NCBI GenBank assembly: GCA_020152595.1
Contig: JAIGNY010002764.1
Coordinates: 249,501-313,500 of the forward strand
Origin: Chiridota heheva
Lineage: Eukaryota; Echinodermata; Holothuroidea; Apodida; Chiridotidae
DNA: 64,000 bases
Reading direction: 5' to 3'
This document shows positions 46,801 to 49,800 of this stretch, piece after piece; position 1 is the stretch's first letter, and each line of letters opens with the position of its first letter. The notes below the pieces were generated by a model, which saw nothing but the letters and a program-made list of their open reading frames with translations, made no database searches and was not told the origin of the DNA. Both the position numbers and the translations under genes were made by a program.

Positions 46801-49800
46801 CAAATCGTTTGAACAATAAATTCTCTATCATTTCCTCCCAGATGAATTCCAGAGCGAAGTCTCCAAAACGTGGTACTTTGAAGGAAACCCCAACGTTATT
46901 CCAGTTGATTTCTGGAGATAAACCTTTTGAAATCAAAGATATGAAGAAGATTCCAGTGCCAGTACAAATTACCAAAGCTGAATTGTAAGTACTATCATGA
47001 ATTGTAAGCACTATCATGAATTGTAAGCACTATCATGAATTGTAAGCACTATCATGGATTGTAAGCACTCATAAATTTGTAAGCACTGTCATGAATTGTA
47101 AGCACTGTCATGAATTGTAAGCACTATCATGAATTTGTAAGCACTCACTAATTGTAAGTACTGTCATGAATTGTAAGCATTGTCATGAATTGTAAGCACT
47201 GTCATGAATTGTAAGCATTGTCATGAATTGTAAGCACTGTCATGAATTGTAAGCATTGTCATGAATTGTAAGCATTGTCATGAATTGTAAGCACTGTCAT
47301 GAATTGTAAGCACTATCATGAATTGTAAGCACTGTTATGAATTGTAAGCACTGTCATGAATTGTAAGCACTGTCATGAATTGTAAGCACTATCATGAATT
47401 GTAAGTACTGTCATGAATTGTAAGTACTGTCATGAATTGTAAGCACTGTCATGAATTGTAAGCACTGTTATGAATTGTAAGCACTGTCATGAATTGTAAG
47501 TACTGTCATGAATTGTAAGCACTCATGAATTGTAAGCATGTGATTATATAATTATGATGATGATGACATGATTGTTGTTGTTATGATGATGATGATGATG
47601 ACATGATTGTTGTTGTTATGATGATGATGATTATTATTATTATTATTATTATTACTACTTTTATTATTATTATGATTACTACTACTACAACAATGACCCT
47701 GGGTCATATATTTTCTACCACATTTGGAACAAGGCGGTCATTCCATATGTCAGTCAATTCAACAGAAAAAGGTGAAAATTACACCCATCATCTTGGATAT
47801 GCTTTAGAATTTGCAAACCTGTTGCAAATCATGTAGCTAGAACACCCCCAAAATGCACGTGCATGCTGATAAATATCTAAAAGAGCAGTTTTTATGTGAT
47901 TTTTTATTTTTTTCTTAACTCAGTTTTATAACTTTACTAAATAATAAGCTTAATTCTAATGAGAATGACACTAAATGCATACATATTATCAATTTCAGAT
48001 CGCTGGTCTTCACACTGCATCATATTTTTTTGACCCCAACAATGGGAATTTAAGAAAAATTTGATGAAATTTGCATTTTGGGAGTCAAGAATACTAGGTA
48101 TAAATAAAATATAATCAGATTGAATTATTCATTGGCTCTTGTTAAATTGACATGGAATGACCTTAGGATCTGTAAAGCCCTTTGGCACGTGGTTCCTCTT
48201 TAATACCCTTTAATCATCACTTTGACCCTAGTAACCTGTATTGATAGATTTTCTAACCCACTGACAGCTAGATCCCTTCCTGTGAATTTAAATTATTCTA
48301 CTTGCTTCCAAAAGCAGTCGTTATTTCCAAGAAAGTTTCCCCCAAAGTGAAATCTAAATTTTGTATTTATTTGAAAAATTGTTACCTGGGTGGTACAGGT
48401 AAATGTGAATGATATGAGCCCTAATTTTTTTTATGATTAGGTATTTGTTAAGTCTTTTGAATGACATTTTGTTGCAGGTTCAAACAACAATTACTGAAGG
48501 ACCACGACCAAGTGTTACATGCAGAGCTGAAGACACCATTCATGTCAAAAACTGAAGCAGTACAGAGACTGGTGAGCTTCCATTGCTGCCAAGATGACAC
48601 CCTTAGGGAAGAAGACCTCAAGAACTGTAAGTAGATTTTGTTTTTCATTTTCAAAGTTCTTCACAACTTCTTATCACTTCTTATAATTTTTTTTAATTCC
48701 AATTTTTGCCCTTTGGGATGTTTTTAATTGTTCTCGTCTTGCAAACTTTTTAATTCTCTAAAAGATATCTGAATTGGGGGTTTTGGGTAAAATAAGGCAT
48801 TTCCGGGGATTATATTGTAAACATTTAGCATCAGTTAAAAATGAATCTGAAACCCTGGTTGAACTTATTTTGACTGTTGACCACACCTTGGCTGGAGGCA
48901 CCACTATAAAGCTGTGCTAGGCCCTAAACCCACAGAGTGTAACATTCATGTACTGTGAAGTACTCAAATTGTCAATTCAGGATTTGTCACTTAAATCCTT
49001 CCATAGACCTTTTTAAACTGACTTTAGCCGAAAGTCATTTCTTCAATACTTTGGCCAATCAGCTGCTGAGGGGATTTTCTTTTTGTTACCCGACCAATCA
49101 GGCACAGTTTTGGAGGAAAAATTTGTAAGCAACAATGTGCGCACATATTACCTTCATGTATAATGCTGCACGTGTAATATGTGCATTTGGAAACATTTTA
49201 CGCTTGGTCCCATACTATGTGTGAATTGTGCTGACTACCAAGTTTCCCGAGTATTTGTTTGGATGATTAGATTTCCCCAGTGTATCATAGGTCAATAATG
49301 GACACACGAATGTTGGTCATGTGATATTATGTAAATTGATTTACCGGAAATTGCTGATTCAGATTTAAAAAGGTTGATACCCTTTGCTTTACAGTCGATG
49401 ATGTGCTGGAGGAACAGTGTGAGAGATTGGTGGAGAAGAAGACTGAAATGTTCAAGAAATACCACTTGCTAATCCTCAAAGAAAGCATGGTGAGTATGCC
49501 TTTATTGATTGATTGATTGATATTTTCACCATCCTTTCAAAAAATGTACAATTATATAAGAATTCAAACATCACAGTACTGTTGATTTGCGATTAATTTA
49601 CTAAACGTTTAGTGGCCAAAATTTGCGAGTGTTTGACGATTAATTGCTACCAAAGCTTCGCCCAAAAATCGGTAAAGAAGAATTTTTGTGGAACTGGTAC
49701 AGTTCCCACACAAACATACCATGCATTTTCAGACCACAAATAGGCCAAGAATTTCACCAAATACAAATATCATGTCTTAAAATTACCACTTGGGCTGATA

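What the first reader, a model, noticed from the sequence alone, without database searches (positions are those of the whole stretch)
46970..47540. A minisatellite seeded by a splice donor: about 29 tandem decoy 5' splice sites directly after exon 8
The 19-bp repeat unit includes the last bases of exon 8 plus the donor (GAATT|GTAAGT). The real donor is simply unit 1 of the array. Every downstream copy keeps AATT|GTAAG, and at least four keep the full GTAAGT. If any copy after the first is used, the added sequence starts TTG TAA in the exon frame, giving a stop just before the GLTSCR1 core. Array length could therefore tune productive splicing, or act as a poison-extension switch. That the array and donor coincide is seen directly; regulation is inference. 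The array might also titrate U1 snRNP.
Basis: partly seen in the sequence, partly recalled or inferred. Interest (0 to 1): 0.75.

Follow-up and report, generated by a model that had tools for sequence, protein, structure and literature searches.

The report
Tandem repeat grown from splice donor
A 19-base repeat has multiplied out of the splice site at the end of one exon of an animal GLTSCR1-type gene, leaving 29 mostly weaker copies of that splice site in the intron; this kind of repeat has been seen before in other animals and is probably tolerated rather than being a switch.

Summary
The array is real. Thirty TTGTAAG units (1 real donor plus 29 copies; 25 of 29 spacings are 19 bp) fill about 46979-47538; unit 1 is the donor of exon 46842-46984 and carries the exon's last 6 bases. 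All 29 copies, if used, put TAA in the very next codon, 7 residues before the Pfam GLTSCR1 match begins.

The regulatory reading is not supported by what could be tested. 25 of 29 copies have C at +6 and pair less well with U1 (-4.3 against -6.8 kcal/mol); 4 tie with the real donor, which is itself the weakest of 8 placed. A 65-bp array in another intron holds 221 donor-like sites at or below -6.8. Extra conservation of the donor core between units is ambiguous.

The arrangement is a known kind: amphioxus 'mirages' (minisatellites over exon-intron boundaries, reported not to disturb splicing) and the human IFI6 minisatellite, whose units serve as alternative donors. A second repeat, 88 bp x 2, starts exactly at the donor 39293. 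Species, RNA use and copy-number variation could not be tested. Verdict: new member of a known kind.

The parts
46842..46984 (+).
   Evidence: acceptor tttcctcccag; frame joins exon 48478-48626 to read ...ITKAEL/FKQQLL...
46979..46997 (+). Unit 1 of the array: TGAATT (exon) | GTAAGTACTATCA (intron); the real splice donor, first intron base 46985
   Evidence: U1 duplex -6.8 kcal/mol, 7 contiguous pairs
46998..47538 (+). 29 downstream units, each with TT|GTAAG; 25 with C at +6 (U1 -4.3), 4 with full GTAAGT (donors 47154, 47401, 47420, 47496; U1 -6.8)
47547..47686 (+). Further short repeats (35-bp unit, ATG and ATT runs) starting 8 bp after the array
   Evidence: TRF
48478..48626 (+). Next exon; opens into the GLTSCR1 core
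   Evidence: PF15249 E 1.1e-24 on the joined five-exon protein, residues 56-156
39293..39468 (+). Second donor-coincident repeat: 88 bp x 2, starts at the first intron base of the preceding donor placed (GTG|GTATGTATGG); copy 2 at 39381 (ATA|GTATGTATGG)
   Evidence: U1 -7.2 real against -3.7 copy
53972..60185 (+). 65-bp x 96 array in the intron 53098-61488, many units with donor-like sites such as TAG|GTATGTGT (51 exact copies); not at a donor (starts 874 bp into the intron)

Best explanation
It is a minisatellite that arose by tandem duplication of a short segment over an exon-intron junction (6 exonic and 13 intronic bases) and then grew and was homogenised by slippage or unequal exchange, as in the amphioxus 'mirages'. 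The spliceosome mostly keeps using unit 1: it pairs with U1 over 7 contiguous bases and lies at the end of a normal 143-nt exon, whereas 25 of 29 copies lack the +6 U, and use of a copy would lengthen the exon by 19 to 547 nt. Any use of a copy ends in TAA at the next codon and would be expected to go to nonsense-mediated decay, so leaky use would be a small loss of output rather than a new protein. Shown: anatomy, frame, stop, U1 pairing energies. Inferred: mode of growth, silence in splicing, decay of the products.
For: Array and junction coincide, sharing exactly the exon's last 6 bases. Real donor -6.8 against -4.3 kcal/mol for 25 of 29 copies; the second donor-coincident repeat shows the same order, -7.2 real and -3.7 copy. 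The window is repeat-rich: 38 merged arrays of period 10 or more cover 28%, so arrays are common here. Eight distinct unit types among the 25 units with exact 19-bp spacing look like ordinary homogenised repeat turnover. Published precedent: in lancelets, mirages in Adh3 and globin genes (Adh3 data and globin RT-PCR suggest no interference with splicing; passages of PMC3087553), and in Adh, troponin C and PGBD5 (passages of PMC3902484; for PGBD5 the authors infer it).
Against: Four copies (units 10, 23, 24, 28) equal the real donor in U1 pairing, and the real donor is the weakest of the 8 placed in this gene (-6.8; the others -7.0 to -13.6). The array RNA folds less well than all 20 of its shuffles (z +3.9), so the copies would be accessible. 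All four common variant sites fall at +6 to +12 and none at -6 to +5 (0.018 by a simple count made after seeing the data), which could be read as the copies being held as donors. IFI6 shows that such copies can be used, and PMC3087553 itself says mirage copies could act as cryptic sites. No RNA data; the organism is not identified.
Confidence: 0.7

Rival explanations
1. Poison-extension rheostat: longer arrays, or changed U1/SR protein levels, shift splicing to copies with TAA in the next codon and so lower the GLTSCR1-core protein.
For: All 29 decoys give the same immediate stop; 4 copies tie the real donor, which is the weakest of 8 placed in the gene; array RNA is accessible; no common variant site lies at -6 to +5.
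Against: 25 of 29 copies are weaker; +6, inside the donor motif, is one of the variable sites; the immediate stop is a property of unit 1 alone (TTG TAA) and needs no selection; amphioxus mirages are reported not to disturb splicing.
Confidence: 0.1
2. The donor moved into an existing array: a minisatellite lay there first and the exon now ends inside its first unit.
For: The shared exonic stretch is short (6 bases) and tandem arrays cover 28% of the window, so an array could have been there first.
Against: Unit 1 has the full GTAAGT while 25 of 29 copies do not, as expected if unit 1 is held by selection and copies drift; the frame at the junction runs smoothly into the GLTSCR1 region; a second repeat also starts at a donor. 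None of these is decisive.
Confidence: 0.14
3. Local U1 clamp: many U1 sites at the start of a 1.5-kb intron stabilise the first donor or protect the intron from premature cleavage and polyadenylation, without the copies being spliced.
For: 29 sites at or below -4.3 kcal/mol in 0.56 kb, 52/kb, against 3.9-18.7/kb in the ten stretches counted other than the 65-bp (46/kb) and 88-bp (0/kb) arrays.
Against: GUAAGC pairs over only 5 contiguous bases; the intron is short (46985-48477); the 65-bp array has more and stronger sites (221 at or below -6.8) away from any donor placed, so such sites arise without a donor role. Titration of the whole cell's U1 by one transcript is implausible (recalled abundance of U1, no call).
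Confidence: 0.06

Closest known systems
'Mirages' of amphioxus (Adh3, globins BflGb6 and BflGb9, troponin C, PGBD5; a retinol dehydrogenase and a presenilin paper are cited for similar structures)
   Same: Tandem repeats that span or abut exon-intron boundaries, with copies carrying splice signals (PMC3087553 and PMC3902484, passages read). Adh3 unit length is given as 10-72 bp, which includes 19 bp; [quoted passage not shown]
   Different: Different gene (GLTSCR1 family); 30 units is more than the 6 and 3 given for the two BflGb6 haplotypes; the species here is not identified, so lancelet origin is not shown.
Human IFI6 (6-16, G1P3) minisatellite with multiple splice donors (Turri et al. 1995, title seen in reference lists; paper not held)
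   Same: Minisatellite whose units are possible donors; PMC4526556 says two downstream repeat units serve as splice donors, giving three mRNA species (passage read).
   Different: There, used copies are said to encode isoforms; here any copy gives an immediate stop.
Intron gain by tandem genomic duplication of AGGT sites (review PMC3443670, passages), and internal tandem repeats at human exon-intron boundaries (PMC2812944, passages)
   Same: Tandem duplication creates extra splice signals at or near a boundary.
   Different: The array holds no AGGT (0 in 46979-47538) and the intron already exists; no new intron is seen.

Membership tests
Amphioxus-type mirage (minisatellite over an exon-intron boundary) | Repeat unit includes the exon-intron boundary | tested here: met
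   Unit = 6 exonic + 13 intronic bases, 30 units
Amphioxus-type mirage (minisatellite over an exon-intron boundary) | Copies carry the splice signal and the real site is at the array's edge | tested here: met
   29 of 29 downstream units keep TT|GTAAG; unit 1 is the donor whose frame joins the next exon
Amphioxus-type mirage (minisatellite over an exon-intron boundary) | Length instability between alleles or in soma | not testable with these tools
   One haplotype only; the genome search did not complete
Amphioxus-type mirage (minisatellite over an exon-intron boundary) | Found in a cephalochordate | not testable with these tools
   Organism of the window not named; no animal sequence collection at hand
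Amphioxus-type mirage (minisatellite over an exon-intron boundary) | Normal mRNA splicing despite the copies | not testable with these tools
   No RNA data
IFI6-type minisatellite with multiple used donors | Each unit holds a donor sequence | tested here: met
IFI6-type minisatellite with multiple used donors | Downstream units used as donors in mRNA | not testable with these tools
   No RNA data
IFI6-type minisatellite with multiple used donors | Use of a copy gives a protein isoform | tested here: not met
   29 of 29 copies give TAA at the next codon
GLTSCR1 gene family | Conserved GLTSCR1 domain (PF15249) in the spliced product | tested here: met
   87.3 bits against cut-off 28.2, profile 1-101 of 102

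The most novel reading that the evidence does not exclude
The array is a length-variable dimmer for a GLTSCR1-family protein (a chromatin-remodelling subunit in vertebrates, recalled): copy number sets the share of transcripts spliced at poison donors, so individuals or cells with longer arrays make less core protein, and somatic instability of the array makes this share vary between cells.
Probability: 0.05. Interest if true: 0.75.

Novelty: new member of a known kind. Interest (0 to 1): 0.3.

Why it matters
A donor-seeded array of 29 copies with near-identical flanks is a natural test of how the spliceosome picks one 5' splice site among many, and of whether minisatellites over junctions are neutral. 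If copies were used, array length would be a simple heritable control of gene output. As it stands it adds a gene to the boundary-spanning minisatellites in print and shows a second, two-copy repeat at another donor of the same gene.

Tried and rejected
U1 titration: rejected as a global effect (one transcript; U1 abundance recalled). Selection on the donor core across copies: left open. The four sites with common variants (at least 4 of 28 units differing) are +6, +8, +10 and +12. One of them lies in the motif -3 to +6, which gives no sign of protection (P 0.33), but none lies in -6 to +5 (P 0.018); both counts were made after seeing the data, treat sites as independent, and TT|GTAAG is invariant partly because it was the search string. 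Donor-likeness of the unit: not unusual against shuffled units (17.5% of 200 shuffles as good), so only its place at the junction is special. Self-match of each donor to its own intron as a mirage detector: useless, because 107 of 200 random GTRNG sites score 16 or more out of 20 in this repeat-rich window. Structure: the array RNA folds worse than its 20 shuffles, so copies are not hidden in hairpins. PDB: no relative of the joined GLTSCR1 protein at E up to 1. tRNA and Rfam (gathering scores): none. Viral contigs: no relative of the protein by tblastn (2 stretches matched a pattern, neither confirmed) and no exact match to one 30-base form of two units. Pfam: three other stretches of the gene gave no family. 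Literature: nine answered searches. I saw listings, and passages only of PMC3087553, PMC3902484, PMC4526556, PMC3618361, PMC3443670, PMC3039753 and PMC2812944; of PMC2572611, PMC8724738 and PMC5389562 little more than reference-list lines. PMC3039753 (a minisatellite acting in a promoter) proved not relevant. I found no paper on this gene's array, but did not search for the gene by name.

Full report
What is there. The window (64 kb, 38.1% GC) carries on its + strand an animal gene with the GLTSCR1 domain. Nine acceptors (31074, 37920, 38718, 46842, 48478, 49395, 51662, 52976, 61489) and eight donors (first intron base 35784, 38242, 39293, 46985, 48627, 49490, 51765, 53098) were placed by eye from reading frame and splice consensus; further exons between them or upstream are not excluded. 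The five exons from 46842 to 53097 join to one open protein of 204 residues whose residues 56-156 match Pfam PF15249 (E 1.1e-24, 87.3 bits).

The array. TRF gives 46979-47538, 19 bp x 29.7. Split on TTGTAAG there are 30 units; of the 29 spacings 25 are 19 bp and the rest 17, 17, 18 and 20. Unit 1 is the real donor. The exon shares TGAATT with the unit and nothing further upstream, so the unit is 6 exonic and 13 intronic bases. Full GTAAGT is in unit 1 and in 4 of 29 copies (units 10, 23, 24, 28); the other 25 read GTAAGC. AATT|GTAAG is kept by 26 of 29, not by all.

Consequence if a copy is used. In 29 of 29 cases the first stop is codon 49 of the exon frame, i.e. TTG TAA directly after the normal junction codon 48. 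This follows from unit 1 alone and so is not independent evidence 29 times over. The Pfam match begins at residue 56, so such a product lacks the core.

Is it more than chance? GTAAG density in the array is 52/kb against 0 to 4.2/kb in the other 12 stretches counted. The start of an array lies within 10 bp of 2 of 8 donors; three nulls expect 0.09-0.13 and give P 0.003-0.006. The second case is an 88-bp x 2 repeat that starts at the first intron base of the preceding donor placed, 39293. Leaving out the flagged donor, 1 of 7 remains: P 0.035, 0.064, 0.10 and 0.19 at 3, 6, 10 and 20 bp. None of 9 acceptors lies within 10 bp of an array end. The unit itself is not unusually donor-like for its composition (17.5% of 200 shuffles as good).

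How would the spliceosome see it? Against my reading: the real donor is the weakest of the eight placed (others -7.0 to -13.6), and the array RNA is less folded than all 20 shuffles (z +3.9), so copies are accessible. For it: the second donor-coincident repeat has the same order (-7.2 real, -3.7 copy), and the 65-bp array at 53972-60185 in another intron has 221 sites at or below -6.8, among them 51 of TAG|GTATGTGT at -8.6; whether these do harm is not known either. These energies ignore protein factors and exon definition.

Unit evolution. Common variants sit at +6, +8, +10 and +12; -2 to +5, +7 and +9 do not vary in units 2-29 (TT|GTAAG was the search string, so its invariance is partly by construction, though spacing shows that no unit was missed). 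One of the four sites is within the donor motif -3 to +6 (P 0.33 for one or none), yet none is in -6 to +5 (P 0.018). These counts were made after seeing the data and treat sites as independent, so I call the matter open. Eight unit types among the 25 units with exact spacing fit homogenising repeat turnover.

What is known. PMC3087553 (passages) reports tandem repeats spanning exon-intron boundaries in amphioxus globin genes and cites Adh3, calls them 'mirages', gives unit lengths of 10-72 bp for Adh3, notes length instability including somatic instability, and says that Adh3 data and the authors' globin RT-PCR suggest no interference with splicing, while the copies could serve as cryptic sites. 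[quoted passage not shown] In human IFI6 two downstream repeat units serve as splice donors (PMC4526556, passage), after Turri et al. 1995, of which I saw only the title in reference lists. So the arrangement and both possible outcomes (silent or used) are in print. What I could not test: that the window is from a lancelet, copy-number variation, and RNA. The search of the window's own genome did not complete in ten tries.

Verdict. A real donor-seeded minisatellite, a new member of a known kind, most likely tolerated. The rheostat reading is possible (about 10% as a rival in general, 5% in its boldest, length-tuned form) and directly testable by junction reads.

Noticed in passing
39293-39468: 88-bp x 2 repeat starting exactly at the first intron base of the preceding donor placed (GTG|GTATGT); a second boundary repeat in the same gene. 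The donor could also be read 3 bases earlier (AAG|GTGGTA), same phase.
   Followed up: partly
53972-60185: 65-bp x 96 array in one intron with 221 donor-like sites at or below -6.8 kcal/mol against U1, 874 bp from the intron's own donor.
   Followed up: partly
31074-35783 and 61489-63072: Reading frame changes within both long exons (between about 33073 and 33102 and between about 33573 and 33721; between about 61565 and 61645 and near 62722-62747) although protein-like sequence continues on both sides. Sequencing or assembly indels seem likelier than a decaying gene, since the open stretches are long; not tested.
   Followed up: partly
window, 38 merged arrays: Tandem repeats of period 10 or more cover 28% of the window, including 49 bp x 69 (23434-26770), 51 bp x about 31 (9225-10826), 20 bp x 50 (6103-7073) and 16 bp x 43 (14162-14835).
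   Followed up: no
31468-31663, 35223-35594, 61734-61821, 61973-62121: Repeats with periods that are multiples of three (48, 18, 33 bp) inside coding exons; the 18-bp one can be read as a repeated six-residue peptide.
   Followed up: no
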